From Kribbella aluminosa (GTDB taxonomy: Bacteria > Actinomycetota > Actinomycetes > Propionibacteriales > Kribbellaceae), in assembly GCF_017876295.1 (NCBI RefSeq), contig NZ_JAGINT010000002.1, positions 4,402,001 to 4,466,000 of the forward strand: 64,000 nt of DNA, in the 5' to 3' direction. The position numbers and the translations under genes are program-made. The notes under the pieces were generated by a model. The model saw only the letters and a list, made by a program, of their open reading frames with translations. It was not told the origin of the DNA and ran no database searches. This document shows, piece by piece, positions 44,701-57,970 of the stretch (position 1 is the first letter of the stretch; every line of letters starts with the position of its first letter).

Positions 44701-45889
44701 GCTGCAGGTCCGTGACCGGCTGGCCGTCGGCCCGTGCCTCGTGCCAGTCCCGGAGCAGCAGCTGGAAGCTCGCGACCTCCGCCTGGACCCGGCGGTCCCG
44801 GCGTTCGCTGCCGAAGGCGGACCTGAGCTTGCCGAGCAGGCCGTGCGGGCGCTCGGCCCGGCCGGCGGTGACGTCCTGCGACAGCTGCGAGGTCTGGTTC
44901 GCCCAGACCACGCGGAGTTGCTGGTCGGTGAGCCTCGACGACAGCTGTACGACGTGCGGGTCGGTCGCCGTACCGGCGTGCCGCACGCTGCTCGCGAGGG
45001 CGCCCAGCGGGATGTCGCCGACCTCGATGCGGACGTGCTGCGGGTCGTCGATGCCGGGCATCCGCAGTACGGCGAGCTGGTCCGCCTGCAGCCGATCGGT
45101 CAGGGTCGCCGCGACGTCGTCCTGGTTCATCGACCCGAGTACGTCGAGCGCGCGCGTCGAGGTGAGGTCGTCCTCGGACGCGGGCCGCTCGCGGCGTTCC
45201 AGCCTGGTGCCGCGGATCTGCGAGGTCCAGAGCCGGCGACCGGTGGTGCTCTGCTGCCGGCTGCGTTTCGGGGCGCGGTGCCGTCCGCCCACGTTGCCGC
45301 GCTGCCGGCGGTGCGACGTCGGCGTACTGCGCGCCGTACGGGCGTCGAGGTACTCCGCGTCGCGGCTGATCAGGCCCGACGTACCGACGATCTCCGAGGT
45401 CCGCACGACCGGTCCCGGCTGCGGGATCCGGCGGAGCCGCTCGGCGGCCTCCGGGTCGTGCGCCGCGGCCCCGGCGAGCGCCACCTGCAGCATCGCCTCG
45501 GCCTCGGCGCGTTGCGACGGGCTGAGACCCGGCCCGCCGAGGTAGCGGTCGAGCGCGTCGGTCGCACCGCGGGCCGCTTCCTGCCCGCGGGCGCGCGCGA
45601 CCTCGGCGCCGAGGATCGCGACGGACTCGGCCAGCAGGCGGTCCTCGGTGACCCGGTCGGCGGCCCGGCGGGTGAGCTGGCCCTGCAGCGACCGCAGCAC
45701 GTCCGCGTCCAGCAGATCGTCGCGGGTACTCAACCGGACCCGGCCGTTCCGCAGCGGCACCGCCGACGGGTGCAGGATCCCCAGGGCACTTCCGACCGCC
45801 CAGCGGGCACGGACCCTCGCGTCCGCGGCGGACAAAGTGGGTGTGGTCAGCCGAATCACCGCCTCCCCGTTCAGTGCCCCGGTGCTCAC
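38753..45889 (-). CDS. Giant multimodular protein 2 (2,378 aa), unknown family
   Basis: The N-domain (residues 1-150; LTTPTLSAADARVRARWAVG, GILHPSAVPLRNG) aligns with giant 1, but about 135 extra residues, including a long polar helical region near 480-600, precede the modules. Six Ser/Gly/Thr-rich segments lie near 685-745, 930-1000, 1225-1300, 1460-1530, 1815-1880 and 2075-2140, with nearly the same spacing as in giant 1; examples are SSRATGRTSGRSKALPLSAG and SVSRTGGRSQSTTI. VLRRYQQEKAG lies near 1620. The C-terminal domain (about 2230-2320; DGTLECEGDPRF, DLRELHNTLPPGNFNAQVAE) matches giant 1. No signal peptide, WXG motif or catalytic domain was seen. A function as a pore or surface structure is conjecture. 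Confidence 0.87.
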   Translation of the reverse strand: MSTGALNGEAVIRLTTPTLSAADARVRARWAVGSALGILHPSAVPLRNGRVRLSTRDDLLDADVLRSLQGQLTRRAADRVTEDRLLAESVAILGAEVARARGQEAARGATDALDRYLGGPGLSPSQRAEAEAMLQVALAGAAAHDPEAAERLRRIPQPGPVVRTSEIVGTSGLISRDAEYLDARTARSTPTSHRRQRGNVGGRHRAPKRSRQQSTTGRRLWTSQIRGTRLERRERPASEDDLTSTRALDVLGSMNQDDVAATLTDRLQADQLAVLRMPGIDDPQHVRIEVGDIPLGALASSVRHAGTATDPHVVQLSSRLTDQQLRVVWANQTSQLSQDVTAGRAERPHGLLGKLRSAFGSERRDRRVQAEVASFQLLLRDWHEARADGQPVTDLQRDLEGLARTIRRHGGSEPALPWTDGVVVDPQAAAFGVAAGRAAAASNAAPHTPEHLRRQVVQQIEILEAAAQDLDMDVATKRNSSLDATTDADQSDAAAAEEDRQHDHGAPERARKLRVLSDEARRKAERHTEIADGYETAAGTAHKALAEYRQLLTQIDAGAAPARIAELAGSAERQVLAYERSLDRAMPVKDLLMTGTPDGQPVTLPADDINRILAANGIDQQIPGRGPAPMPSAEYRRLMSTDGMVFPVGHDPDADVSTLPQVRLRLVPRDLTEITNRNYEMAEQMSGTLGEGGTSVGTTNTHSTSTNFGLSLQPFIALAAPGTPLHAAAQLVSPRVDVSRGRTLADSSGATAHYQSGWVDDNRGESLLYEWSGTWEIEVRNAPTESWSAVETLDAGRQQTWVSSAYTVQPPKETVSLDEIGHGQEVTGEFPRHAVTSITGLQDVTDRLVRRAQQQYGGLDRVAYDHIAGLMVNDSHRLLREMSQPGGITRRIPTGGATEYDLTWEIEPVWADVELVGESSSEMWQEEVLVDFAGSNASQTFGTSATATAGLAFPGKPDAVNPLGAATVLNNVGGSGVNLAPNVSAGRNVSRTGGQSVSMTTITPAVHRNQGPTQGVLVGLNVRATLRKAGDPKAAPIVETDTCKALLRVPENDLLRVGGRADKDAVPRNADDPDKSVKLDPNGRLLLRGDPAPTTDPQHVPPWMGYGPDQIRGAGKALPQNLKGAEAAQLQALDGLRKLGLVPPHGATSGDDLQNRNYQRIIQNINAPRIEAGINQACQGGLIVMLEDRGIAGTPKWRPFRLTVTQDHDEATGRLTTQGAGVSDNENVVLLGISSRATGRTSGRSKALPLSAGLGGSRGPAAGVSGLMGRLGLTGTRTARGRNFSHTAGRRVNRVTLSESTEPLDRLAQGIRIKFAEITGKGDAVPLADVRGSMEVAYDSSMTRVGTPVYEKDPKAPHADAVQQAFPVAVDAGDLADALCKAIPAIRADSTALPSLHADLAPTSLFANREWLNGGYRLPFTVVRAPGNPVHMLRDRTILPQEYQIVIRGKAVSLTHLAMSQQNSVDIEFPMNDVGSTSGTSSSGGFGGSAGGGHVGAVGADAVSRSGGVSVSRTGGRSQSTTISETSGDEDLLINPGTHHEFMERYAMTADIVHNGEVVGQVELPEARVQKVMAERRALELYADKKLDLPLWVVSDVAERYLNDRLPISRRTAAGVLRRYQQEKAGVTTGLAAEHTNERLMAKLLQQNQLPASQSPIGPAQLDAVAQQVIAHADERREVHTSDAYEDGLGASVMESVTVAGRPFDPRTLVEPQVDAVAPGLRAASLQLQNDIDVDLDPRSFPGHLNDMLGAGGFYAPIEVPVQGQARPDVLFVRVRARFTGPRTIDNVPDKPVDEDNPDAGTEPDIPQEDVGKARQKYDYQSVDRSTGHTTTVSGGIDGKGGLGGGTDASGGLSTDQTRNTTAGSGEQNTTLDRLGHFDLVKTHRAAVFTTEVVRIRNAGSAAQASLRWRLGRVDPADVTTVSERAEVRADLVQWIPRGDVMDGPPPAGSASAEAAIADHRQIDLPEGAVAIRVALHGRDRERRHELLENLTEYLEQPGVLGENGTAAYEHLLHANLSATALAAKAGRMFGPGIDLQSMTKTGNGNKTVDVRLQATAIGFELDGPEVEGQVGRVWRRQKTYRSSNSGNRLTPLTATGGLEGGLVGVSGSIGEQVKEQASDANGTRLETSRFLEGQLVTVRIPVRYDATVRTSTDKGRGEPVTRDTTKVRDLARGELFVRMLGHQYLDVLRQMERGATLDTALADAQLRAEPTDFGRPDVVADELQQGKSGVVSRPYTPLLELIQQAKAEERTMVLLVRQADGQEQKYRATKDGTLECEGDPRFGPAFERLHPTVVRMAEGRVDLRELHNTLPPGNFNAQVAEALVQNGVPRDVLKGLDYQTTVQQMAYVVSHSARTHSGGSAGRTISPTGHGPSLAGP

Positions 45890-46007: not shown

Positions 46008-46487
46008 ATGACTGAGACGTTCGGTGCGTCGGAGTGGACGGTCAGCGACGCACGCCAACTCGTCCACGAACTCCGGCGGATCGCGGAGGGTGACCGGGAG
46101 TACGACGCCATCGAACTGTTCGTCGCCCTGTGCGAGTACCTGGACGAGCTGCACGGCACCGACACGGCCCGCGGCCGGTACGGGTTCGGCTCCTTCTACA
46201 CAGGCGCACAGCTCGACCAGCTCGCCGCCGCGGTCCAGGCCGTCCGCGGTCCGAGCACCGCCTGGGACCCGGCGTCGAACCGGATGGACCAGCCGGTGAA
46301 CGCCGCCGTCACGCTGGCCGACGGCCGCGAGCTGGCCGGCTGGATGGAAGGACGTCCGGCATGGGAACGACAGGTCGGCCTCTGCCTTCGGGCGCTGTAT
46401 GCCTATCTAGACCAGTTGTACGGCGGTCCGGGACTGTTCAACCAGCTGCTCACGCCGCTCGAGCGGGAGCGGGTCGCGGCGCGGTAA
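46008..46487 (+). CDS. 159-aa protein of unknown function, divergent from giant gene 2
   Basis: Not recognised. The 159-aa soluble protein is acidic and mostly helical: DARQLVHELRRIAEGDREYDAIELFVALCEYLDELHG, then YGFGSFYTGAQLDQLAAAVQAV and a C-terminal VGLCLRALYAYLDQLYGGPGLFNQLL. The two YLDEL/YLDQLYG stretches look like a weak internal duplication. It lies between the divergent giant gene and the Tad locus, 62 nt before the SAF gene, so it could belong to either. The ATG at 46008 is the first in the frame. Codon use looks normal for the region. Confidence 0.7.
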   Translation: MTETFGASEWTVSDARQLVHELRRIAEGDREYDAIELFVALCEYLDELHGTDTARGRYGFGSFYTGAQLDQLAAAVQAVRGPSTAWDPASNRMDQPVNAAVTLADGRELAGWMEGRPAWERQVGLCLRALYAYLDQLYGGPGLFNQLLTPLERERVAAR

Positions 46488-46549: not shown

Positions 46550-47287
46550 GTGAGTCTCTCGTCCTCCACGCGCACTTCTTCCCAAGGGTCCCGGGCCACG
46601 GGCCGACCGGCGGGTGGCGGCTCGACCCGCCTCCCGAGCGGCCGGGAACGACGTCCGGCGCTGGCCGCGCTCGCGGTCATCCTGATCCTGCTCGGCGCCG
46701 CCGGATCCGCGCTGATCGCGCTGAACAGCGGCAACCGGTCCGACTTCGTCGCGATCTCCGCCGGCGCGCTGCCGCCCGGCCACCGGATCGAGCCCAAGGA
46801 CTTCTCCCGCGGCGACCTGGCCGGCGCCACCGGCGGGCTGGTCCCGTGGTCCGAGGCCGGCAAGTACGTCGGCCGGTACACCACCAGCTGGCTGTACAAG
46901 GACCAGTTCGTCACGCCGGAGAACTTCACCAAGGACGGCCAGCAGCCGATCCCGCAGAACGGTGCCCTTGTCGGTGTCAGCCTGGACGCCGGCCACGCGC
47001 CGTCCGACGGGCTGAGCGTCGGCGACATCGTGCAGGTCGTCCGGGTCCCGGGTGGCAACGACGGCGGCGGCAACTCGACGCTGCTGGTCGGCGCGGCCAT
47101 GGTGACCTCGAGCGCCGGCGCGATCACCGACAGCAAGACAAGTGCGAACAGCTCGCTCAACGTGACGATCCTGGTCCCGCAGTCGAAGGTCAACCTGGTC
47201 GCTGCTGCCGCCGCGGCGAAGACGTTGTCGGTCGCGAAACTGGCGCCCGGTACCAAGACCGACGTGGCGAGCGGCGGGTCGAACTGA
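46550..47287 (+). CDS. SAF-domain (CpaB/RcpC-like) pilus assembly protein
   Basis: A 245-aa protein with a Ser/Thr/Arg-rich cytoplasmic N-terminus, one membrane helix (ALAALAVILILLGAAGSALIAL, about residues 43-64) and an extracytoplasmic SAF domain (FVAISAGALPPGHRIEPKDFS, LVGVSLDAGHAPSDGLSVGDIVQVV). CpaB/RcpC proteins with this layout help anchor Tad pili to the cell wall or modulate pilus biogenesis. In a monoderm no outer-membrane secretin is expected. The GTG at 46550 starts the soluble tail; the frame upstream overlaps the 159-aa gene and is not conserved. It is followed at one-base overlap by the CpaE-like gene. Confidence 0.82.
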   Translation: MSLSSSTRTSSQGSRATGRPAGGGSTRLPSGRERRPALAALAVILILLGAAGSALIALNSGNRSDFVAISAGALPPGHRIEPKDFSRGDLAGATGGLVPWSEAGKYVGRYTTSWLYKDQFVTPENFTKDGQQPIPQNGALVGVSLDAGHAPSDGLSVGDIVQVVRVPGGNDGGGNSTLLVGAAMVTSSAGAITDSKTSANSSLNVTILVPQSKVNLVAAAAAAKTLSVAKLAPGTKTDVASGGSN

Positions 47288-48090
47288 TGGCACTGGTGGC
47301 GCTGGCGAGCGCGAAGGGCTCTCCGGGCGTGACCACGGCGAGCCTGGTCCTCGGCGCCCTCTGGCCGCGGCAGGTGCTGCTGGCCGAGTGCGACCCGGCC
47401 GGCAGCGACGTCGCGATCCGGATGACCGGCCCGGCCGGTGCGGCGCTCGACTCCGACCGCGGTCTGGTCAGCCTGGCCGCCGCGAGCCGGAAGGGCCTGG
47501 GCGACGAGGTGATCCTGGCCCACAGCCAGCAGCTGGACGGCGGACTCGACGTGCTGCTCGGTGTGCGGTCGCCCGAGCAGGTTGGCGGTATGGGCGGGCT
47601 GTGGCACCCGCTCGGCATCTCGTTCAACCAGATGCAGCAGAGCGACGTACTCGCGGATTGCGGGCGGATCGGCGCCTCGTCGCCGCAGCTCCCGGTGATC
47701 CAGGCCGCGCGTCTGGTCGTGATGGTGTGTACGGCGACCGGCTCGTCCGTGGCGCACCTGCGCGAACGGCTGTCCACGCTCGTGCATCACGTGGACGCCC
47801 AGCTCGGTGTCGTGGTGGTTGCCGACCCGAAGCAGCGGGACGGTGTGAAGCAGGTGTGGTCCGTGCTGGACGCCATGTCGCTGCCGGTGCGGCACCGCTG
47901 GCACCTGGCGTACGACCCGGCCGGGGCGGCGTTCTTCGACGGCCGCGGCCACGGACGGCTCGACAAGACCCAGCTGATCCGGTCGGCGAGCGTGATCGCC
48001 GCGGAGATGGCGTCGCTGGTCGCCGCCCCGCCGCCGCAGGACTTCGACATGGCGAACGCGGCGTTCCCGCCAGGGGACTACCGACCGTGA
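47287..48090 (+). CDS. CpaE/MinD-like ATPase of the Tad system
   Basis: A 267-aa P-loop protein of the ParA/MinD superfamily, as found in CpaE. The N-terminus ALASAKGSPGVTTASLVLGAL carries a deviant Walker A (KGSPGVTT, residues 10-17), and LLAECDPAGSDVAIRM gives the conserved aspartate. LVVMVCTATGSSVAHLRERL follows. CpaE proteins place Tad machines in the cell. The receiver domain of Caulobacter CpaE is absent, as in other actinobacteria. The ATG overlaps the SAF stop by one base. The stop overlaps a mini-ORF (48087-48161) that links to tadA. Confidence 0.85.
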   Translation: MALVALASAKGSPGVTTASLVLGALWPRQVLLAECDPAGSDVAIRMTGPAGAALDSDRGLVSLAAASRKGLGDEVILAHSQQLDGGLDVLLGVRSPEQVGGMGGLWHPLGISFNQMQQSDVLADCGRIGASSPQLPVIQAARLVVMVCTATGSSVAHLRERLSTLVHHVDAQLGVVVVADPKQRDGVKQVWSVLDAMSLPVRHRWHLAYDPAGAAFFDGRGHGRLDKTQLIRSASVIAAEMASLVAAPPPQDFDMANAAFPPGDYRP

Positions 48091-48161
48091 GCGAGCGAAG
48101 CGAGGTCACCATCAAATACAGCGCCACCCTCCGCTCATCGGCGTCCGGAGGACGTCGATGA
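48087..48161 (+). CDS. 24-codon bridging mini-ORF with a SERSE motif
   Basis: A GTG at 48087 overlaps the CpaE-like stop (GTGA), and the ORF VSERSEVTIKYS and so on ends in a TGA at 48159-48161 that overlaps the tadA ATG (ATGA). So it joins both genes by 4-nt overlaps at each end. Its opening GTGAGCGAGCGAAGCGAG resembles the element at 61975-62058. It may allow ribosomes to run on into tadA, or may be an incidental repeat; no product is known. Confidence 0.35.
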   Translation: MSERSEVTIKYSATLRSSASGGRR

Positions 48162-49468
48162 GCGCAGACCAGGAGCTGGTTCGGCGCTTGCGGGTCCAGG
48201 TCGCCGAGCGGCTGAACGAGCAGCGCCGCCGCGACCAGGTGAACGGCGTACCGCCGATGAGCGCGGAGGACGAGCGGGAGTACGCGCGGTCGCTGATCGT
48301 GCAGGTGCTCGAGGACCACGCGCGGTACGAGCTGGCCGAGGGGCGGACGCCGCCGACGCCGGACGACGACGCGCAGATCGCCGGCGCGATCCACTCCGCG
48401 CTGTTCGGGGTCGGCCGGCTGCAGCCGCTGATCGACGACCCCGACGTCGAGAACATCGACATCAACGGCTGCGACCAGGTCTTCGTGCAGTACGGCGACG
48501 GCCGCGAGGAGACGCCCGGCCCGGTGGCCGAGAGCGACGAGGAACTGATCGAGCTGATTCAGGTACTGGCCGCGCACGCCGGCCTGACCAGCCGTCCGTT
48601 CGACTCCGCGAACCCGCAGCTGGACCTGCGGCTGCCGGACGGCTCCCGGCTGTCGGCCGTGATGGGCGTGACGTCGCGGCCCGCGGTGTCGATCCGCCGG
48701 GCCCGGCTCGGCCGGGTGTTCCTCAAGGACCTGGTTGCCAACGGCACCATGACCGACGACGTCGGCTCGTTCCTCCGGGCGGCGGTCGCGGCCCGGAAGA
48801 ACATCATGATCGCCGGCGCGACGAACTCCGGGAAGACCACGATGCTGCGGGCGCTGGCCAACGAGATCCAGCCGCACGAGCGGCTGGTCACCGTCGAGCG
48901 CTCGCTCGAGCTCGGGCTCGGGGAGTTCAAGGACCTGCACCCGAACGTGGTCGCGTTCGAGGAACGGCTGCCGAACTCCGAAGGCGTCGGCGAGGTGACG
49001 ATGGCCGATCTGGTCCGGCGATCGCTGCGCATGAACCCGAGTCGCGTCATCGTCGGTGAGGTGCTCGGCGACGAGATCGTCACGATGCTGAACGCGATGA
49101 GCCAGGGGAACGACGGCTCGCTGTCGACGATCCACTCGAACAGCTCGATGGAGGTGTTCAACCGGATCAGCACGTACGCCATCCAGGCGAGCGAGCGGCT
49201 GCCGATGGACGCCACCCAGATGCTGATCTCCGGAGCGCTCGACTTCGTGGTGTTCGTCCGCCGGCACAACGACTACCAGCGCGGCGGCGGCGTCAGCCGG
49301 TACATCGAGAGCATCCGCGAGGTGACCGGCTGGGACGGGCGGGTGCTGTCCGGCGAGGTGTTCGCGCCGGGACCGGACGGCCGGGCCGCGGCGCACGCGC
49401 CGATCGCGTGCATGAACGAGCTCGAGCACTTCGGGTACCAGCCGCTCGTGCACGGAACCTGGGCGTGA
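48158..49468 (+). CDS. tadA: TadA/CpaF-type secretion ATPase
   Basis: A 436-aa type II/IV secretion ATPase that powers Tad pilus assembly. Walker A is IAGATNSGKTTML near residue 220, followed by ERLVTVERSLELGLG (Asp/Glu box), Walker B-like PSRVIVGEVLGDEIVTML and the His box GNDGSLSTIHSNSS. The N-terminal half contains DPDVENIDINGCDQVFVQYGDG, as in CpaF. The ATG at 48158 has GGAGGACG upstream. It is followed 4 nt later by tadB. Confidence 0.95.
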   Translation: MSADQELVRRLRVQVAERLNEQRRRDQVNGVPPMSAEDEREYARSLIVQVLEDHARYELAEGRTPPTPDDDAQIAGAIHSALFGVGRLQPLIDDPDVENIDINGCDQVFVQYGDGREETPGPVAESDEELIELIQVLAAHAGLTSRPFDSANPQLDLRLPDGSRLSAVMGVTSRPAVSIRRARLGRVFLKDLVANGTMTDDVGSFLRAAVAARKNIMIAGATNSGKTTMLRALANEIQPHERLVTVERSLELGLGEFKDLHPNVVAFEERLPNSEGVGEVTMADLVRRSLRMNPSRVIVGEVLGDEIVTMLNAMSQGNDGSLSTIHSNSSMEVFNRISTYAIQASERLPMDATQMLISGALDFVVFVRRHNDYQRGGGVSRYIESIREVTGWDGRVLSGEVFAPGPDGRAAAHAPIACMNELEHFGYQPLVHGTWA

Positions 49469-49472
49469 TGCG

Positions 49473-50378
49473 ATGACCAACGAGACCTTGGCGGCGCTGG
49501 TCTGCGGCGCGGTGGTGGGCGGCGCCGTACTGCTGCTGATCGTCGCGATCCGCGGTACCGAGCCGAAGGACGAGACGCCCTCGCTGTTCCGGAACCGGAG
49601 CGCCGAGAACCGCAAGAACATGATCCGGCTGGGCGCCGGTGTCGCGACCGGCCTGCTGGTGCTGGTGGTGACCCGCTGGCTGGTGCTCGCGGTCGCCCTG
49701 GGCCTGCTGGCCGGGATGGCGGACCGGTTCTTCGGCGGCAGCGGCGAGGAGCGCCGGGCGATCGACCGGCTGGAGGCGCTGGCCACCTGGACCGAGGCGC
49801 TCCGCGACACCATCGCCGGTGCGGTCGGCCTGGAGCAGGCCATCCCGGCCACCGCGGTGAACGCCGCCCCCGCGATCAAGCCCGGCCTGAACCTGCTGGT
49901 CGACCGGCTGCGGATCCGGGAACCGTTGCCGTCAGCACTGATGCGGTTCGCCGACGACCTCGACGACCCGTCCGCGGACCTGATCGTCGCGGCCCTGGTA
50001 CTGAACGCCCGGCTCCGCGGACCCGGCCTGCGGGAGGTGCTCAGCGCGCTGGCGGACTCGGCCCGCGAGGAGCTCGACGTCCGCCGGAAGGTCGCGGCCG
50101 AACGCCGGTCCACCCGGCGCAGCGTGCAGGTGGTGGTCGCGATCACGCTGATCATGGCGGCCGGCCTGGTGCTGTTCAACCCGACGTACATGGCGCCGTA
50201 CACGAGCTTCATCGGGCAGGTCGTGCTGGCCGTGGTGATCGGCCTGTACGCGCTCGGCCTGATCTGGCTGCGGCGGCTGGCGAAGATCGAGGTACCGGAG
50301 CGGTTCCTGATCGGCGTCTCCAAGGACCACGGATATCACCGCCCGGGTGACGAGCGGATGGAGGTGGTGAACGGATGA
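49473..50378 (+). CDS. tadB: TadB-like inner-membrane pilus assembly protein
   Basis: A 301-aa membrane protein with the T2SF/GspF domain. Hydrophobic helices lie near residues 8-26, 52-85 and 221-245 with another near 248-266; the cytoplasmic core has EALATWTEALRDTIAGAVGLEQAI and VLNARLRGPGLREVLSALA, as in TadB. It forms the membrane platform together with TadC. The ATG at 49473 begins 4 nt after tadA, with a TGATGCG context; the stop overlaps the tadC start by 4 nt (ATGA). Confidence 0.9.
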   Translation: MTNETLAALVCGAVVGGAVLLLIVAIRGTEPKDETPSLFRNRSAENRKNMIRLGAGVATGLLVLVVTRWLVLAVALGLLAGMADRFFGGSGEERRAIDRLEALATWTEALRDTIAGAVGLEQAIPATAVNAAPAIKPGLNLLVDRLRIREPLPSALMRFADDLDDPSADLIVAALVLNARLRGPGLREVLSALADSAREELDVRRKVAAERRSTRRSVQVVVAITLIMAAGLVLFNPTYMAPYTSFIGQVVLAVVIGLYALGLIWLRRLAKIEVPERFLIGVSKDHGYHRPGDERMEVVNG

Positions 50379-51295
50379 CGTGGGCCTTCATCACCGGCGC
50401 GATCGCCGGGCTCGGCGTGTACGTGCTGGTGCGGATGTTCATCAGGCCACGGGCCAACGTGCTGTCCACGATCGCCCGGATCGACGCCGGCCGCGGCGGC
50501 TTCGCCGGCGGGGCCACCACGAGTGCGGCCGGCGAGCGGGTGCTCGGCGGCGTCGACCGGGCCCGGGAGACGCTCGGCCGCCGGCTGGAGGCCGAGGCGA
50601 ACGCCCGCGGCTGGGCGTTCGGCAAGCTCCGCCGGGACCTCGCGGTGATGAACCAGCCGTTCGCCGCGATGCTCGCCACCAAGGTGTTCTTCGCGCTCGG
50701 CGCGATGGTCTTCATCCCGATCGTGCTGTTCCTGTTCTCCGCGATCGGCCTGACCGCTCCCAGCGCGACACCGGCGATCGTGACGCTCGCCTTCATGGGC
50801 GTGGCGTTCTTCCTGCCGGACCTGGCCCTGCGCCAGGAGGCGGAGAAGCGGCGGCGGGACTTCCGGCACGTGGTCGGCAGCTTCCTGGACCTGGTCGCGA
50901 TGAACCTGGCCGGCGGCCGCGGCCTGCCGGAGGCGCTGATGACCGCATCCACGATCGGTGAGCACTGGGCGATGGCCCGGATCCGGCAGGCGCTGGCGAA
51001 CGCGCGGCTGATCGGCATCACGCCGTGGGACGCGATGGCCCGGCTCGGCGAGGACCTGGGCGTCGAGGAACTGCGGGACCTGGCGTCGGCGCTCGCACTG
51101 GCCGGCGACGAGGGCGCGAAGATCCGGTCGTCGCTGCTCGCCCGGGCGGCGTCGCTGCGCCGCAAGGAGCTGGCCGACGTCGAAGGCAAGGCCGGCGAAC
51201 GGTCCCAGTCGATGCTGGTCGCGCAGCTGGTGATGATCGCGGCCTTCTTCCTGTTCCTGGCCTTCCCGGCAGGCGTGGCGATCCTAGGCAGTTGA
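50375..51295 (+). CDS. tadC: TadC-like inner-membrane pilus assembly protein
   Basis: A 306-aa GspF-domain protein paired with TadB. It has membrane helices at the N-terminus (residues 2-17), near 105-150 and at the very end (LVMIAAFFLFLAFPAGVAIL), and the T2SF core VVGSFLDLVAMNLAGGRGLPEAL. The ATG overlaps tadB by 4 nt. A stable hairpin begins 5 nt beyond its stop and separates it from the pilin-like gene. Confidence 0.9.
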   Translation: MTWAFITGAIAGLGVYVLVRMFIRPRANVLSTIARIDAGRGGFAGGATTSAAGERVLGGVDRARETLGRRLEAEANARGWAFGKLRRDLAVMNQPFAAMLATKVFFALGAMVFIPIVLFLFSAIGLTAPSATPAIVTLAFMGVAFFLPDLALRQEAEKRRRDFRHVVGSFLDLVAMNLAGGRGLPEALMTASTIGEHWAMARIRQALANARLIGITPWDAMARLGEDLGVEELRDLASALALAGDEGAKIRSSLLARAASLRRKELADVEGKAGERSQSMLVAQLVMIAAFFLFLAFPAGVAILGS

Positions 51296-51333: not shown

Positions 51334-51558
51334 ATGCGGATGACCTCGGAGTTGATGTTCTGGCGGGCGATGGCCGGCTACGCGGTGGCGCGAGCCCAGG
51401 CGCAGCGCGCCCGTCAGCGCGCCGGACAGACCGAGCTTGGCGCCTCCGCACTGGAGTGGGCGATCATCTCGGCGATCCTGGTCGCGGCCGCGCTGGCGAT
51501 CGGCGTGGTCGTGAAGCGCGTGATCAGCAAGCGCACGTCCGAGATCGACCAGGGCTGA
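51334..51558 (+). CDS. Flp-type pilin-like small protein
   Basis: A 74-aa protein with a basic N-terminal leader of about 35 residues and one hydrophobic segment: TELGASALEWAIISAILVAAALAIG. The Gly followed by A-S-A-L-E, with glutamate at +5, is the layout of a class IV prepilin cut after the glycine. The short tail KRVISKRTSEIDQG follows. So the mature protein would be under 45 residues, like Flp pilins. ATG at 51334 or 51340 can start it. It follows the hairpin and precedes the TadE-like genes. Confidence 0.8.
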   Translation: MRMTSELMFWRAMAGYAVARAQAQRARQRAGQTELGASALEWAIISAILVAAALAIGVVVKRVISKRTSEIDQG

Positions 51559-51569
51559 CGGCCACACCG

Positions 51570-51998
51570 ATGCGGCTGGGGCGCGGCAGGCGGCGGAAAC
51601 GGTCCGAGCGGGGAGTCAGCACGCTGGAGCTGGCCATCCTCGCGCCGGCCATCCTCGCGCTGATCTTCATCTCGATCCAGACCGCCCTCTGGCTGTACGG
51701 ACGGTCCGTCGCGCTGAACGCCGCACAGGAAGGCGTGTCCCGCCTGCGGCTCGTGCAGCCGACGGTCTACACCGACGCGGTGGGGGAGAAGGTGCGTTCG
51801 GACATCCAGTCCTACGCCCAGCAGCTGGGCGGTACGACGTTGCAGAACACCGCCGTGCCGTTCCCGTCGTACAACAGCCCGCAGGGCATGGTCTCGTTCA
51901 CCGTCACCGGTGACACCGTCTCGCTGGTGCCCGGCCTGAAGCTGACGGTGAGCCGGACCGCCACCGGCCCGATCGAGCAGTTCCAAGCCGACAAGTGA
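51570..51998 (+). CDS. TadE-like pseudopilin
   Basis: A 142-aa protein with an Arg-rich start (MRLGRGRRRKRSERG), then the prepilin-like VSTLELAILAPAILALIFISIQTALWLYGRSVAL. The ERGVSTLELA segment shows the TadE cleavage and Glu+5 motif. The rest (about 95 residues) is a soluble extracytoplasmic domain with many Thr/Val. It overlaps the next gene slightly. TadE and TadF are minor pilins needed for Tad pilus assembly. Confidence 0.85.
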   Translation: MRLGRGRRRKRSERGVSTLELAILAPAILALIFISIQTALWLYGRSVALNAAQEGVSRLRLVQPTVYTDAVGEKVRSDIQSYAQQLGGTTLQNTAVPFPSYNSPQGMVSFTVTGDTVSLVPGLKLTVSRTATGPIEQFQADK

Positions 51999-52009
51999 GG
52001 ATTCCCACG

Positions 52010-52441
52010 ATGCAGCTTCGGCGGCGCCGTGAGCGCGGCACGATGGCGCTGGAGATGGTGATCCTCGCGCCGGTGCTGCTGGCGCTGTTCATGTTCCTGC
52101 TCGCCTGCGGCCGGTACTTCCAGACCTCCTCACTGCTGGAGGGTGCAGCCCGCGACGGTGCTCGCGGCGCCAGCCAGTCGCGGTCGGTCCAGGAGGCGCA
52201 GGGCCGGGTCGACCAGGCCGTCAGCGACGCGCTGGGCCAAGCGGTGAAGTCCTGCAAGGAGACCGCGAGCGGCTCGATCACCACCGGGTTCGTTGCCGGG
52301 TCGCCGTTGTCCGTCGAGGTCACGTGCACGATCAACTACCGCGACCTGGGCCTGCTCGGGCTCGGTGGCGACACCAAGATCACCAAGCGCTTCACGTCGT
52401 CGCTCGACCCGTACCGGGGGGTGCGCGGTGCCGGCTCCTGA
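52010..52441 (+). CDS. TadE/TadF-like minor pilin
   Basis: A 143-aa protein beginning MQLRRRRERGTMALEMVILAPVLLALFMFLLACGRYFQ; the ERGTMALE motif followed by a long hydrophobic helix is the TadE signature. Three more cysteines occur further on (KSCKE, VTCTIN, plus ACGRY in the helix). The ATG at 52010 has GAGG 9 nt upstream and starts right at the basic region; a GTG at 51995 in the same frame overlaps the previous gene by 4 nt and is also possible. The last 14 nt overlap the following TadG-like gene. Confidence 0.82.
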   Translation: MQLRRRRERGTMALEMVILAPVLLALFMFLLACGRYFQTSSLLEGAARDGARGASQSRSVQEAQGRVDQAVSDALGQAVKSCKETASGSITTGFVAGSPLSVEVTCTINYRDLGLLGLGGDTKITKRFTSSLDPYRGVRGAGS

Positions 52442-53204
52442 CCACCTGAGGTCGCGGCTCGTCGAGTTCCTGCGGATCGACGCACCGCGGCCGCACCGGC
52501 GGTTCGCGCGCGGCGCACTGAGCCCCGCCGTGGCGATCCTCGCGGTGATGATCTTCACGCTGGCCGGCCTGGTGATCGACGGCGGCCGGCAACTCGGCGC
52601 CCGGTCCCGCGCGGTCGGCTACGCGCAGGAGGCCGCCCGGGTCGGCGCCGCCGCCATCCAGCTGAACTCGGCCGAGGCGAAGATCGACACCGCCAAGGCC
52701 GCCACCGCGATCGCCGGGTTCTGCGGCCAGGTGCAGTCCAACGATCCGGCCGTGACCTCCTGCGGCCCGACCACGCTGACCGACAAGGAGGTCGACATCC
52801 AGGTCGACATCCAGAACCGGACGACCTTCCTCGGCCTGATCGGCAAACAGTCCCTGAAGGCGGTCGGCACCGGCCAGGCGCACGCCGAACAGGGCGTCAA
52901 CAAGGCCGACGACAGCCCGACCATCCCGTCGATCGTGGTGAACACGAGCCCCGACGGCCCGGGCAACATCCCGATCACCACCGCGGTCCCGCCGACCATC
53001 GACCTGCCGTGCCCGACCTGGACCGTCGGCTCCCCACGCCCGACCTGGACGCTGACCCCGTTCCCGTTCCCGGCCACCTGCTCTCCGAACGTGACCCCGA
53101 CGCCGACGCCGGGTCCGTCCGGGACACCGACCACGACGCCGACCACCCCGCCCAAGTCCGTGCCTACCGGCCGCCCCAAGCCCTCTAAGACGCCTCGGCG
53201 CTAG
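52428..53204 (+). CDS. TadG-like protein with a Pro/Thr-rich C-terminal tail
   Basis: A 258-aa protein with an N-terminal hydrophobic helix of TadG/Flp-like type (ALSPAVAILAVMIFTLAGLVIDGGRQLGARSRAVGYAQEAAR, with the conserved DGGR and AQEAAR features of TadG), a soluble core with FCGQVQSN and VTSCGPTT, and from about residue 190 a low-complexity tail rich in Pro, Thr and Ser. Such tails span peptidoglycan. The GTG at 52428 is the first start in frame past the upstream overlap; the frame extends further upstream as a shadow of the previous gene. Confidence 0.8.
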   Translation: MPAPDHLRSRLVEFLRIDAPRPHRRFARGALSPAVAILAVMIFTLAGLVIDGGRQLGARSRAVGYAQEAARVGAAAIQLNSAEAKIDTAKAATAIAGFCGQVQSNDPAVTSCGPTTLTDKEVDIQVDIQNRTTFLGLIGKQSLKAVGTGQAHAEQGVNKADDSPTIPSIVVNTSPDGPGNIPITTAVPPTIDLPCPTWTVGSPRPTWTLTPFPFPATCSPNVTPTPTPGPSGTPTTTPTTPPKSVPTGRPKPSKTPRR

Positions 53205-53224: not shown

Positions 53225-53875
53225 GTGCATACGTTTGCCATCCCCGCCGCGGTGCTCTGCGGAGTACTGCTGCTGAGTGCCTGCGGCAAGGACTCGAACG
53301 ACGGCGGCCACCCGGTCCCGGCCGGCGGCGACTCCGGTACGTCGACGTCGAACACGCCGACCGGTGGGCCGTCGTCCGGGCCGAGCGAGACGGCCACGAG
53401 CGCCCCGACCCAGCCCGCGACCAGCGAGAAGCCGGCCGCCAAGCAGGTGATCGTCCAGGCCGGGAACTTCGGGTCGAACCCCGCCGTCCAAGGGCTCGTG
53501 ACCAGTTACCCGCTGTACTTCAAGGCGCTCGTCGACCGCGACGACACGATCCTGAAGCAGCGGTTCCCGTCGTTCTTCTACGCCGACGTCGCGCAGGGCA
53601 TCGTGGATGCCAAACGCAACGGCTGGGTGATGAAGCCGCCGGGCAGCGTGGTCGTGGTCGGCGCCCGCAGTACGCCGCAAGGCACCGTGACGGTGCAGAC
53701 CTGCCGCTCGCAGAGCACGCAGTACTGGGACCCGAAGGCACAGAACTGGACCGTCGCGGCACCGCACGGATCGGCCGAGGTGATCGAGATGGTGAAGACC
53801 GGGATGGGCTGGCTGCCGTACCGGCTGGTCACGAGCAAGGGCGTGAACTGTGCGGGCATCCGCTATCCGGCCTAG
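53225..53875 (+). CDS. Predicted lipoprotein in the Tad locus
   Basis: A 216-aa lipoprotein. The signal peptide MHTFAIPAAVLCGVLLLSAC ends in a clear lipobox with Cys20, followed by a Ser/Thr/Pro/Gly-rich linker of about 50 residues. The remaining domain (PLYFKALVDRDDTILKQRF, VVVVGARSTPQGTVTVQTCRSQ) resembles short NTF2-like folds that lipoproteins of actinobacterial Tad loci carry, but I cannot name a family. The GTG at 53225 lies 21 nt after the TadG-like stop behind an ACGGAGGA ribosome site. Confidence 0.75.
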   Translation: MHTFAIPAAVLCGVLLLSACGKDSNDGGHPVPAGGDSGTSTSNTPTGGPSSGPSETATSAPTQPATSEKPAAKQVIVQAGNFGSNPAVQGLVTSYPLYFKALVDRDDTILKQRFPSFFYADVAQGIVDAKRNGWVMKPPGSVVVVGARSTPQGTVTVQTCRSQSTQYWDPKAQNWTVAAPHGSAEVIEMVKTGMGWLPYRLVTSKGVNCAGIRYPA

Positions 53876-53983
53876 ATCAGAACGCCGATTTTCAGGTTGC
53901 GAAGAGGTGACGGGGCACTGGGCAACGGGCATGATGCCCCTGGTCGAAGATAATCTGCGGGAAGACGAGTCTGGGGAGTGAGG

Positions 53984-54916
53984 ATGCACAACCGGGTAGG
54001 CCGCGCGCTGCTCGCCTTGAGCGCAGTTCTCGCACTGCTGGTGGCAGTCCCCGCCACGACCGCCTCCGCCGAGACCATCACCACCGGCAACTCGGTCTGC
54101 AGCATGTACGTCAACTCGGTCGGCTTCGGCTCCTACTGCAGCTCCGGCCAGCCGTACCTCGGTGACGGGCCTCCGCCGCCGACCTGGAAGACGCGGCTCG
54201 AGGGCAAGCCGTTCGTGCCCTGCCGGAACTTCGAGATCCCGCCGGGCATCCGGCTGCCGAAGGCTCCGGACGGCAAGAAGTGGGTGCTCCGGGTGACCAT
54301 CACGGATTACAACCTGGACACCTACAACGGCGGGGACAAGGCGCACCTGGAGCGCGCGTACATGCCGGTCGACGCGGCCGAGGAAGCCCAGTGCCCGTTC
54401 CCGGACTACATGAAGCAGTTCTGGTACCGGTTCCAGACCAACTACCCGGACCCGGCCTTGCAGGTCATGCCGACGTTCACGCCGCGGGTGAACGTCCCGG
54501 CCTACTTCACGCTGACGCCGCAGACCGCCGAGGTGTACGAGACCGACGGGACGACGAGCAGCTACTTCAGCCCGGGGCACAACCTGACCATGCGCGGCAT
54601 GGTCGTGGAGCTGGCGATCGATCCGGGTGACGGCACCGGTGAGTTCACCTGCCTGACCGGGACGACGCCGCTGGACGACCCGACGGGATACGACCAGACG
54701 AAAGACCCGTACCACCAGCTCAACCCGTGTTTTCACAAGTACGCGAAGTCGAGTGCGAGTCAGCCGGACGGGATGTACACCGTGAAGCTGACGATCACCT
54801 GGGAAGTGTCCTATTGGATCGGCAAGGACGCGGGTGGCTGGAAGCCGATCGGGAAGGCGAGCGTTCACGCCGTACAGCGGTTGCCGGTGCAGGAAGTCGA
54901 GGCCATCGGTGGTTGA
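53984..54916 (+). CDS. Secreted protein of unknown function
   Basis: A 310-aa protein with a textbook signal peptide: positively charged start, hydrophobic core (ALLALSAVLALLVAV) and AxA cleavage after residue 29 (TTASA-ETI). The mature domain has several cysteines (SVCSMYVNS, SYCSSGQ, VPCRNFE, AQCPFP, FTCLTG, NPCFHK), suggesting disulfides, and many beta-rich stretches (WVLRVTITDYNLDTY, YTVKLTITWEVSYWIG). No catalytic motif was recognised. Genes like this accompany Tad loci in related actinomycetes. The ATG at 53984 is used with GGAG upstream; a GTG at 53978 is in frame. About 100 nt before it no gene was seen. Confidence 0.75.
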   Translation: MHNRVGRALLALSAVLALLVAVPATTASAETITTGNSVCSMYVNSVGFGSYCSSGQPYLGDGPPPPTWKTRLEGKPFVPCRNFEIPPGIRLPKAPDGKKWVLRVTITDYNLDTYNGGDKAHLERAYMPVDAAEEAQCPFPDYMKQFWYRFQTNYPDPALQVMPTFTPRVNVPAYFTLTPQTAEVYETDGTTSSYFSPGHNLTMRGMVVELAIDPGDGTGEFTCLTGTTPLDDPTGYDQTKDPYHQLNPCFHKYAKSSASQPDGMYTVKLTITWEVSYWIGKDAGGWKPIGKASVHAVQRLPVQEVEAIGG

Positions 54917-54949
54917 TCCGGTGGCTGATGGCGGGGGTATGGAGGAGCG

Positions 54950-57900
54950 ATGGTAAGGACGAATGATCCGGTGCGCGCGGCGCGGCTGCCGCAGCGGCGG
55001 TCGACGAGTCCGGGCGCGGACCGGCTGAAGGGCTTCCTCGCGCTGCTCGCGATCCTCGCGATCGTCGGCGGTGTGCCGTACGTGCTGCTGCGATTCTTCG
55101 GTACGCCGTGGCCGGACAGCATGCCCACCAAGAGCATGCTGTTCAGCGAGCTGAACGTCCGGACCGTGCTGGGCATCATCGCGTTCTTCGTCTGGATCGC
55201 CTGGCTGCACTTCGTGGTCTGCCTGATCGCGGAGGCGGTCGCGGAGGTCCGCGGCCACGGCCTGTCCCCACGGGTCCCGCTCGGCGGCGGCTCGCAGGCG
55301 CTGGCCCGGCGGCTGATCGGCACCGTCGTACTGATCGCGGCCGGCGCGGGCGTGAGCCTGCCGGTGGCGAGCGCCGCCACGACGAGCGGCCCGGTCGCCC
55401 CGACCGCGGTCACGGCGCGGCACAGCACGCAGGATTCGACGTCGTCGCAGTTCCGCCAGACCGAGGCGTCCAGCACGATCCTCAGCGGCAGCAACCAGCA
55501 GGCGAACAAGACCACCACCGGCGTCCGGACGAACCATGACCACAAGGGTCAGGTGATCAAGTACACCGAGGTGCGCCCGCCGCACGGCCGCAACTACGAC
55601 TGCCTGTGGGACATCGCGGAGCGGCATCTCGGCGACGGTCGCCGATACAAGGAGATCTACGACCTCAACAAGGACAAGCTGCAGCCGGACGGCCGCCGGC
55701 TGACCAACCCGGACCTGATCATGCCGGGCTGGCAGGTACGGCTGCCGGCCGACGCGAAGGGCCCGGGGGTGCACACGGTCCGGGTGAGCATCGGCGACCA
55801 CACGTCGACCACCGAGACCAAGACCCACACCACTCAGGCCCGGACGAAAACGACCGGGACCAAGACGACGGCCAAGCCGAAGGTCGCGGTCGACCACAGG
55901 ACCGAGACCGGGACCAGCGGTCCGGGGCGCTACGCGGAGCAGGGCATCGAGAAGGGGTCCTCGCTGGGGATCGTCAGCTCGACGACCGACCCGGGCGCGA
56001 AGAACGTCAAGCCGGGCGGCCCGAACGTGACGGCCGAGCCGCACATCCCGGGCACCGGGACGAACACGCAGGGCGAGCCGGCCGGCGGCGGTACCCAGGT
56101 GCCGGTGGCGGCACCGATCGCCGCGCACAGCGGCGGCATCAGCCTGCAGGAGGCCGGCATCTTCGGCTTCGGCGCGACATTGCTCGCGGCCGGCCTGGCG
56201 CTGGCGCTGAAGCGCCGCCGCGGCTGGGCGCAGGGACCGGGGCCGAAGGCCGCCGGTCAGCGGCAGACCGAGATCGACCTGCGGCTGGCGGCCGACGTAC
56301 CGACCGCGCAGTTCGTGGACAACTCGCTTCGCAAGCTCGGCGCGGACATGACCCAGCTCGGGCGCCCGATGCCGAACGTGGTCGCCGCGCTGGTGACCGG
56401 CCGCGCGCTGACCCTGGTCCTGGACCCGTACGAGGCGCAGCCCGCCCCGCCCGGTCCGTGGCAGGCGATCGCCGAGGGCACCCGCTGGACGCTGCGGCGC
56501 GGCTACGGACCGTCCGGCGAGGTGAATGCGCCCGCGCCGTACCCGACGCTGGTCACGGTCGGCCAGAACGCCGACGGTGCCACGGTCCTGATCGACCTCG
56601 ACACCGCGAACGGGATCGTCGCGTTCGGCGGCGTGACCAACGCGTCCCGCGACGTGGTCGGTTCGCTGGCCGTCGAGCTGGCCACCAACCTGTGGTCGGA
56701 GGGCGCGCACATCAGCATGGTCGGATTCGGTGACGACCTGTCGTCGCTGTCGCCGAGCAGGCTGAGCTACTGGGTGCGGCTGGACGACGCGATGGGCGAG
56801 GTGGTCCGTCGTACCGAGGCGCAGGTCCAGGCCTGCCAGCGGCGGAACGCCGGCTCGGTCGCCGAGGCCCGGATGACGCACCCGGACGCGGCGCTGTGGG
56901 GCGCGGAGATCATCTTCGTGTCGGCGCCGCCGTCACCGGAGGAGCAGGACCAGCTGAACCGGGTGGCCGCGGACACCAAGCGCAGCATCTCGGTGGTCGT
57001 GGTCGGTGACGTGCTGAACGCGCCGTGGCGGTTCGTCGTGGACGAGAAGGACCAGGCGGTCTGCCGGCTGCTCGGCCTCGAGGTCGATGCCCACAGCATC
57101 GACCCGGAGCAGTTCGCGGACCTGGTCCAGCTGTTCGACGCGGCCGAGGCGGATGCTCGCGACAAGCGCCGGTCGGAGCAGGACATGCCGGCGTACGAGT
57201 TCTCGGCCACCGACCTGAGCCAGCCGGCCCCGGTCGAGGTGGACCTGCTCGGCCCGGTCGAGGTGGATGCACGCGGCGTGATCGACGAGGGCCGGATCGC
57301 GCTCGCGACCGAGATCATCGCGTTCCTGGCCAGCCAGGACTACGGCGTACACCCGAACGTGCTGGCCGGTGCGATCTGGCCGCGCGGCATCAGCCAGGAG
57401 CTGCGCGACTCGGCGCTCGAGCACACCCGCCGCTGGGTCGGTGTGGACGCGATGTACGCCGACGAGTCCGGCCGCTGGATGCTGAACCGCAGCGTGGTCC
57501 GGGTCGACTGGGACGTGTTCCGGACGCTGGCGAAGCAGGCGTCGATGGTCGACGACCCGCGTGGCCCGCTGTCGACGGCGCTCAGCCTGGTGCACGGCGC
57601 CGCCTGGTCGAACCTGCCCGGCGGCCGCTACTCGTGGCTGGCCGCGTCCGGCATCGAGCGCCGGATGGTCGAGGCCGTCGTCGACGCCGCCCTGCGGCTC
57701 GCCGAGGCGTCCCTCGGCCACAACGACGGCAACCTGGCCCGCACCGCCCTGCAGACCGGCCTGAGCTTTTCGCCGGCCTCCGAGGAACTGTGGCGGGCCA
57801 CCCTCCGGCTCGCGGCCCACTTCGGCACCACCGAAGACGTCACCAACGTCGCCGGCCAGATGTACGCCGCCCTCACCAAACACGGCGCCCCCCGCGGCCC

Positions 57901-57970
57901 CGAAGCCGAAACCGACGCCCTCGTCGACGAGCTCCTCCCCGGCTACCACCGCCCCGCCCAGGTCGCCTGA
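54950..57970 (+). CDS. Membrane protein with LysM and C-terminal BTAD-like domains
   Basis: A 1,006-aa protein. Two membrane helices lie near residues 27-52 and 73-98 and a third near 120-142; a LysM peptidoglycan-binding domain spans about 215-267 (CLWDIAERHLGDGRRYKEIYDLN, NPDLIMPGWQVRLP). A Thr/Lys-rich stretch follows, then a fourth helix near 397-420 and a long cytoplasmic part. From about 762 the chain shows PVEVDLLGPVEVDARG, the start of a SARP-like winged helix, and a bacterial transcriptional activation (BTAD) domain to the end. So it could bridge cell wall and cytoplasm and signal between them. It starts at an ATG with GGAGGAGC upstream. The family is typical of actinobacterial Tad clusters. 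Confidence 0.85.
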   Translation: MVRTNDPVRAARLPQRRSTSPGADRLKGFLALLAILAIVGGVPYVLLRFFGTPWPDSMPTKSMLFSELNVRTVLGIIAFFVWIAWLHFVVCLIAEAVAEVRGHGLSPRVPLGGGSQALARRLIGTVVLIAAGAGVSLPVASAATTSGPVAPTAVTARHSTQDSTSSQFRQTEASSTILSGSNQQANKTTTGVRTNHDHKGQVIKYTEVRPPHGRNYDCLWDIAERHLGDGRRYKEIYDLNKDKLQPDGRRLTNPDLIMPGWQVRLPADAKGPGVHTVRVSIGDHTSTTETKTHTTQARTKTTGTKTTAKPKVAVDHRTETGTSGPGRYAEQGIEKGSSLGIVSSTTDPGAKNVKPGGPNVTAEPHIPGTGTNTQGEPAGGGTQVPVAAPIAAHSGGISLQEAGIFGFGATLLAAGLALALKRRRGWAQGPGPKAAGQRQTEIDLRLAADVPTAQFVDNSLRKLGADMTQLGRPMPNVVAALVTGRALTLVLDPYEAQPAPPGPWQAIAEGTRWTLRRGYGPSGEVNAPAPYPTLVTVGQNADGATVLIDLDTANGIVAFGGVTNASRDVVGSLAVELATNLWSEGAHISMVGFGDDLSSLSPSRLSYWVRLDDAMGEVVRRTEAQVQACQRRNAGSVAEARMTHPDAALWGAEIIFVSAPPSPEEQDQLNRVAADTKRSISVVVVGDVLNAPWRFVVDEKDQAVCRLLGLEVDAHSIDPEQFADLVQLFDAAEADARDKRRSEQDMPAYEFSATDLSQPAPVEVDLLGPVEVDARGVIDEGRIALATEIIAFLASQDYGVHPNVLAGAIWPRGISQELRDSALEHTRRWVGVDAMYADESGRWMLNRSVVRVDWDVFRTLAKQASMVDDPRGPLSTALSLVHGAAWSNLPGGRYSWLAASGIERRMVEAVVDAALRLAEASLGHNDGNLARTALQTGLSFSPASEELWRATLRLAAHFGTTEDVTNVAGQMYAALTKHGAPRGPEAETDALVDELLPGYHRPAQVA

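What the first reader, a model, noticed from the sequence alone, without database searches (positions are those of the whole stretch)
54950..57970. Wall-binding LysM protein with a cytoplasmic BTAD transcription-factor-like end
One 1,006-aa chain joins several membrane helices, a LysM domain and a SARP-like/BTAD C-terminus. This is an unusual topology, as BTAD domains normally sit in soluble regulators. A membrane-tethered regulator that senses the wall or pilus state is conceivable. Domain positions are read by eye.
Basis: partly seen in the sequence, partly recalled or inferred. Interest (0 to 1): 0.5.

Follow-up and report, generated by a model that had tools for sequence, protein, structure and literature searches.

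The report
Wall-anchored Tad pilus subunit, regulator-like end
A large membrane protein with a predicted wall-binding part outside, and a dead motor fold plus a transcription-factor-like fold inside, is a regular but unstudied partner of one type of pilus in actinobacteria.

Summary
Window 54950-57970 encodes one 1,006-aa chain: three N-terminal membrane helices, an outside LysM domain, a fourth helix, and a cytosolic half ending in winged helix plus BTAD (SARP fold; AfsR and EmbR are the top solved matches). The gene closes a Tad pilus gene run. 70 of 79 complete relatives have TadZABC within 10 kb upstream; in 25 genomes of the genus it pairs one-to-one with one TadA subtype (29 and 29). The LysM+BTAD pair is already annotated and in print (Kasimatis 2013, Table 2), without function. 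The C-terminus is predicted inside. The winged helix is the most constrained segment (omega 0.085), but several AfsR DNA-contact positions are changed, and the acidic D71 that AfsR needs for activation is acidic in 1 of 87 (7 of 7 control SARPs). DNA binding stays open. Best reading: wall-anchored scaffold of monoderm Tad pili; main rival: tethered regulator. My capped open-access searches showed no functional study.

The parts
54950..57970 (+). 1,006-aa LysM / pseudo-FtsK / SARP-fold membrane protein gene
   Evidence: relatives
54941..54947 (+). GGAGGAG, ribosome-binding-site-like sequence before the ATG
   Evidence: read
55034..55090 (+). membrane helix 1 (residues 29-47), N-terminus predicted inside
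55175..55231 (+). membrane helix 2 (residues 76-94)
55313..55369 (+). membrane helix 3 (residues 122-140)
55565..55759 (+). LysM domain (about residues 206-270), predicted outside
56153..56209 (+). membrane helix 4 (residues 402-420), followed by KRRR
56270..57154 (+). pseudo-ATPase domain of FtsK/HerA/EccC fold (residues 441-735)
56624..56653 (+). degenerate P-loop site (residues 559-568, FGGVTNASRD), no GK[ST]
   Evidence: position inferred from the strand/helix order
57227..57523 (+). winged-helix domain of SARP/OmpR type (residues 760-858)
57395..57439 (+). recognition-helix equivalent (residues 816-830)
57524..57949 (+). BTAD helical (TPR-like) domain (residues 859-1000)
46562..47287 (+). 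putative RcpC/CpaB-like (SAF) gene, start uncertain; no Pfam match; named by position only
   Evidence: SAF-annotated genes at the like place
47287..48090 (+). TadZ-like gene (no Pfam match; named by position)
48158..49468 (+). TadA/CpaF pilus ATPase
   Evidence: T2SSE E 2.3e-32
49473..50378 (+). TadB platform protein
   Evidence: T2SSF E 3e-9
50375..51295 (+). TadC platform protein
   Evidence: T2SSF E 3.5e-9
51334..51558 (+). Flp-like small pilin (no Pfam match; by size, position and relatives)
51570..51998 (+). TadE minor pilin
   Evidence: Pfam TadE E 3e-10
51995..52441 (+). TadE minor pilin
   Evidence: Pfam TadE E 9.7e-12
52440..53204 (+). TadG-like gene (Pfam Tad), start uncertain
   Evidence: E 1.2e-5
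53225..53875 (+). putative lipoprotein gene between TadG and the LysM gene; labelled only in the Kribbella-type loci
53978..54916 (+). putative secreted protein gene in the run (no Pfam match)

Best explanation
It is a dedicated, wall-anchored membrane subunit of one type of monoderm (actinobacterial) Tad pilus machine. Outside, the LysM domain on a flexible stalk binds peptidoglycan and fixes the machine where the pilus must cross the wall. Inside, a catalytically dead FtsK/EccC-fold domain and a SARP-fold module form a docking scaffold for the pilus ATPase and platform. Shown or predicted here: gene association, domain order, topology, missing Walker A, purifying selection on the folded domains. 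Inferred: peptidoglycan binding, oligomer formation, docking to TadA/B/C, and that scaffolding rather than transcription is the main job.
For: TadZ, A, B and C lie upstream on the same strand in 70 of 79 complete loci. Of the other 9, five are cut by a contig end under 2 kb upstream, and four have a 70-71% TadA whose coordinates lie 11-23 kb upstream on the same strand (that the contigs are the same is assumed). 7 of 7 loci taken from the plasmid collection show the four genes too (7 of 216 matched records). One-to-one with TadA of >= 70% identity: 29 and 29 in 25 genomes, the same four genomes carrying two of each. Nine genomes of the order with only 35-43% TadA-type matches lack it. In 75 loci with a Tad label upstream, 43 lie within 100 bases of it and 11 of these touch or overlap; 21 lie 1.5-1.9 kb away. 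FtsK/EccC fold Z 15.5 and 14.3; 0 of 87 have GxxxxGK[ST]. LysM is the best-conserved domain to other chromosomal relatives (60% mean identity over 59). AfsR D71, whose change diminished activation, is matched by an acidic residue in 1 of 87 members but 7 of 7 control SARPs.
Against: The winged helix is the most constrained segment (omega 0.085); R819 is kept in 81, A821-type A in 77 and W829 in 85 of 87, so its surface does something specific, possibly DNA. Other actinobacterial Tad pili assemble from tad clusters whose paper never mentions LysM (M. luteus, PMC4322843, passages), so it is not needed for every Tad pilus. No interaction or pilus defect was tested. A pseudo-ATPase plus SARP is also what a sensor-regulator could look like.
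Confidence: 0.5

Rival explanations
1. Membrane-tethered transcription regulator: LysM and the pseudo-ATPase sense wall or pilus state and the SARP end binds the tad promoter, in the manner of ToxR/CadC-type one-component regulators (recalled).
For: True SARP fold; predicted cytosolic; strongest purifying selection on the winged helix; the window keeps R94 and has R at the K95 position; AfsR also joins its SARP domain to a nucleotide-binding (NOD) domain (PMC10936776, abstract start, passages).
Against: AfsR R87 position is D in 72 of 87, S91 is A or E in 75, T88 is A in 77, R94 is R in only 38. D71 position is acidic in 1 of 87 against 7 of 7 control SARPs. Domain net charge -7 in the window, family mean -3.7, controls -2 to +3, though 34 of 87 members are at -2 or higher. 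Some contacts (T88, R92, E76) also vary in the controls, so this is no proof. It lies at the end of the pilin gene run. Promoter repeats were not searched for.
Confidence: 0.3
2. DNA-handling subunit: an FtsK-like membrane protein with a winged helix that receives or holds DNA next to a Tad pilus used for DNA uptake or transfer.
For: TcpA coupling protein and FtsK motor are the top fold matches; 216 plasmid records match, only 3 of them over 80% of the query; M. luteus tad genes are required for transformation (PMC4322843, abstract and passages) and an FtsK-family gene adjoins its tad-1 cluster (PMC8467076, passages).
Against: No Walker A in 87 of 87; the M. luteus FtsK is reported with GTTGSGKS, so it is not the same protein type.
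Confidence: 0.1
3. Active FtsK-type translocase motor for pilus or cargo.
For: Fold. The Walker B position holds an acidic residue in 36 of 87 members and two in a row in 6 (L061, L066, L080, L085, L087, L112), so this site is not dead everywhere.
Against: Walker A absent in 87 of 87; the window has no acidic residue at the Walker B position (FVSAPPS).
Confidence: 0.03
4. Chance fusion or annotation artefact.
For: Weak Pfam scores for the window protein alone.
Against: 79 of 80 fetched loci hold one complete ORF of 910-1,627 aa matched by the profile; omega 0.085-0.20 in the folded domains; confident models.
Confidence: 0.01

Closest known systems
LysM + BTAD protein of a Cutibacterium acnes plasmid tad locus (PAGK_2369, Kasimatis 2013, PMC3666418 Table 2)
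   Same: Pfam LysM and BTAD in one protein, at the same place after the TadE genes of a tad locus
   Different: Listed there as 'TadB'; no topology, FtsK-like domain or test of function in the table and section seen. Its sequence was not fetched here
SARP regulators AfsR and EmbR
   Same: Winged helix plus BTAD fold
   Different: Here behind membrane helices, LysM and a pseudo-ATPase; several AfsR DNA contacts and the D71 position are changed
FtsK motor, TcpA, EccC/EssC ATPase domains
   Same: FtsK/HerA-type fold, here behind N-terminal membrane helices as in FtsK (recalled)
   Different: No Walker A; a SARP module follows
RcpC, the Tad alignment complex of P. aeruginosa (PMC12307814, abstract and passages)
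   Same: Analogy only: links the inner-membrane pilus machine to the envelope
   Different: A periplasmic dodecamer that meets an outer-membrane secretin; no shared fold is claimed or was tested

Membership tests
SARP (Streptomyces antibiotic regulatory protein) transcription factors | OmpR-type winged helix followed by BTAD | tested here: met
SARP (Streptomyces antibiotic regulatory protein) transcription factors | DNA-contact residues of the winged helix as in AfsR | tested here: inconclusive
   W74 and R94 kept in the window, R at K95; R87, T88, S91, R92 changed; loop shorter. The 7 control SARPs also vary at several of these but keep R94 in 7 of 7
SARP (Streptomyces antibiotic regulatory protein) transcription factors | acidic RNAP-contact residue at AfsR D71 | tested here: not met
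   G807 in the window; acidic in 1 of 87 members, 7 of 7 controls
SARP (Streptomyces antibiotic regulatory protein) transcription factors | binds direct repeats and activates transcription | not testable with these tools
   needs binding and reporter assays
FtsK/HerA ATPases | FtsK/HerA fold | tested here: met
   Z 15.5, rmsd 3.4, 221 residues to 2ius
FtsK/HerA ATPases | Walker A GxxxxGK[ST] | tested here: not met
   0 of 87
LysM peptidoglycan-binding proteins | LysM sequence signature | tested here: met
   window E 1.1e-5 to the LysM part of PRK11198, under that model's whole-protein cut-off; 6 of 30 members match Pfam LysM, best 7.3e-12, the window not among them
LysM peptidoglycan-binding proteins | binds peptidoglycan | not testable with these tools
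   needs pull-down with wall material
Tad pilus machinery (as an associated component) | encoded with tadZABC and pilin genes | tested here: met
   70 of 79 loci; 29/29 pairing
Tad pilus machinery (as an associated component) | needed for pilus assembly | not testable with these tools
   needs a deletion mutant

The most novel reading that the evidence does not exclude
A wall-sensing, membrane-tethered SARP: LysM reports peptidoglycan contact or pilus extension through a pseudo-FtsK ring to a DNA-bound SARP end, so that a pilus machine controls its own genes from within its basal body.
Probability: 0.22. Interest if true: 0.75.

Novelty: new variant of a known kind. Interest (0 to 1): 0.45.

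Why it matters
How Tad pili are anchored in bacteria without an outer membrane, where the secretin is absent (PMC6668835, passages), is to my knowledge open. This family offers one defined candidate with a wall-binding part, matched in 27 of 98 sampled genomes of the class (a few over LysM alone) and in 216 plasmid records including 5 of Cutibacterium. A dead FtsK fold joined to a SARP fold is also a clean test case of a transcription-factor fold used either as a tethered regulator or as a structural adaptor.

Tried and rejected
Viral contigs: 8 stretches matched a pattern, none confirmed as a relative. Sequence searches of solved structures: nothing with the whole protein; the profile of 757-1006 found only designed TPR proteins; the profile of 428-745 found nothing credible, best E 0.12. 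The fold claims therefore rest on the models. The weak Pfam hits DUF2975 and YukD were set aside as noise. An active motor was judged unlikely, although 36 of 87 members have an acidic residue at the Walker B position. SARP-type direct repeats were not searched for: transcript starts could not be fixed without gene calling; only a first blastn of the Kribbella upstream regions was made. Profile labels drift (a downstream 'TadA' label in Kribbella loci lies where the window has an ABC-type ATPase gene; TadE and TadG labels mix), so only TadZ/A/B/C were counted; the RcpC-like query failed in that script, so that gene was not searched for. One of 80 loci (L088) was dropped because it has no complete ORF. 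AfsR numbering was carried over through sequence alignments; helix 1 contacts (S46, Q48) are too uncertain to count. The paper searches list only part of what they found (for example 25 of 239, 15 of 155, 12 of 37).

Full report
What is there. The ORF 54950-57970 (+) encodes 1,006 aa, starting at an ATG with a good ribosome-binding-site-like sequence. The organism is not told; the named best relatives are Kribbella proteins over the full length (up to 87% identity), and 22 other genomes of the genus carry it at 73-88%. Hydropathy gives four membrane segments, at 29-47, 76-94, 122-140 and 402-420. Charges over 87 aligned members follow the positive-inside rule for N-terminus in, LysM out and C-terminus in. 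Median net charge is +4 at the N-terminus, +2 at 98-120 and +6 at 421-440, each at least +1 in every member; it is -2 in the loop 51-71 and -4 at 271-400, though +1 in the outside linker 142-205. No dedicated topology program was available.

The folded parts. LysM is weak for the window protein by curated models but clear in relatives, and it is the domain best conserved to the 59 other chromosomal relatives (60% mean identity). The cytosolic half was modelled from 52 sequences (A3, chosen from the window and 79 complete loci): mean pLDDT 85, pTM 0.54, so the domain arrangement is uncertain. Its central part alone reached pLDDT 90, pTM 0.88. The central part matches TcpA, FtsK and EccC (Foldseek E from 3.6e-8; VIA Z 15.5 to FtsK 2ius, rmsd 3.4 over 221 residues, and 14.3 to EccCb1 9jv8, rmsd 3.1 over 210). 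The strand and helix that should frame the P-loop read FGGVTNASRDVV. No member of 87 has GxxxxGK[ST] in the cytosolic part, although the first glycine is kept in 85. At the Walker B position the window reads FVSAPPS; 36 of 87 members have an acidic residue there, 6 of them two in a row. I read it as a pseudo-ATPase. The C-terminal 250 residues match AfsR (Z 14.7, rmsd 4.8 over 233) and EmbR (Z 14.1, rmsd 5.0 over 226).

Context. The gene closes a same-strand run with TadA, TadB, TadC, two TadE and a TadG-like gene by Pfam. The RcpC-like, TadZ-like and Flp-like genes are named by position or relatives only (no Pfam match). Of 80 fetched loci 79 hold a complete gene; 70 of 79 have TadZ, A, B and C upstream on the same strand within 10 kb. 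Five of the remaining nine have under 2 kb before the contig end. The last four have a 70-71% TadA whose coordinates place it 11-23 kb upstream on the same strand, if the unnamed contigs are the same as. Of 75 loci with a Tad label upstream, 43 have it within 100 bases, 21 at 1.5-1.9 kb. Seven loci of the plasmid collection, of 216 matched records, show TadZ, A, B and C too. In 25 genomes of the genus, 29 copies face 29 TadA genes of at least 70% identity, and the same four genomes have two of each. Five of 14 further genomes of the order carry it within about 7 kb of a 40% TadA; the other nine have only 35-43% TadA-type matches and none of it. In a sample of the class 27 of 98 genomes match, a few over LysM alone.

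Is it a transcription factor? AfsR contacts DNA through S46, Q48, W74, P79, S80, Q81, R87, T88, S91, R92, R94 and K95; changing R59, D71, E76 or R173 diminished activation (PMC10936776, passages). Carried over by alignment, W74 is W in 87 of 87; R87 is D in 72; T88 is A in 77; S91 is A in 49 and E in 26; R92 is R in 61 and H in 22; R94 is R in 38; K95 is D in 35 and R in 18. The window has D, S, E, H, R, R at R87, T88, S91, R92, R94, K95, and no counterpart of the P79-Q81 loop. The D71 position is G in 70 and acidic in 1 of 87, while 7 of 7 canonical SARPs of the same genome are acidic there. These controls vary at T88, R92 and E76, but keep R94 in 7 of 7 and have no acidic residue at R87 (0 of 7). 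Net charge of the domain is -7 in the window, -3.7 on average in the family and -2 to +3 in the controls; 34 of 87 members are at -2 or higher. Against a mere relic, the winged helix has the lowest omega of nine segments (0.085; eight close Kribbella pairs). The surface is under strict selection, but the AfsR way of binding DNA and RNA polymerase is not evident. DNA binding stays open.

Literature. Kasimatis 2013 (PMC3666418; one section and table passages seen) lists PAGK_2369 with LysM and BTAD in the C. acnes plasmid tad locus, so the domain pair is in print. The M. luteus studies (PMC4322843 and PMC8467076, passages) do not mention LysM. My full-text searches (listings, several capped) showed no functional study of the family and no report of its FtsK-like domain. 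They cover open-access papers only.

Verdict. The most likely role is a wall-anchored scaffold of a monoderm Tad pilus subtype (0.5), with a tethered regulator next (0.3). I rate it a new variant of a known kind: a Tad pilus subtype with a composite LysM / pseudo-FtsK / SARP subunit.

Noticed in passing
window 38753-45889 (-): A 2,378-aa ORF reads away from the tad gene run; not identified here.
   Followed up: no
window 53978-54916 (+): Putative secreted protein; an iterated profile also labels genes just downstream of the LysM gene in many Streptosporangiaceae loci. Profile drift is possible.
   Followed up: partly
G003, G015, G018, G021: Four genomes of the genus carry a second copy (33-34% identical over its C-terminal piece, 42-45% over its N-terminal piece) with its own TadA of 70-71%, so two pilus systems of this type coexist.
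   Followed up: partly
window 46097-46157 (+): A 61-base stretch in the small gene before the RcpC-like gene (ATG at 46008) stays 79-84% identical in three Kribbella loci (L046, L048, L050) whose other upstream matches are broken up.
   Followed up: no
L085, L087 and L116: In two loci labelled Streptomyces and one Actinomadura the LysM gene appears separated from its TadA by 14-23 kb instead of adjoining the run (contig identity assumed).
   Followed up: partly
L051: A record titled Streptomyces sp. SID13031 carries a Kribbella-type locus (71% identity, gene order as in Kribbella); the record may be misnamed.
   Followed up: no
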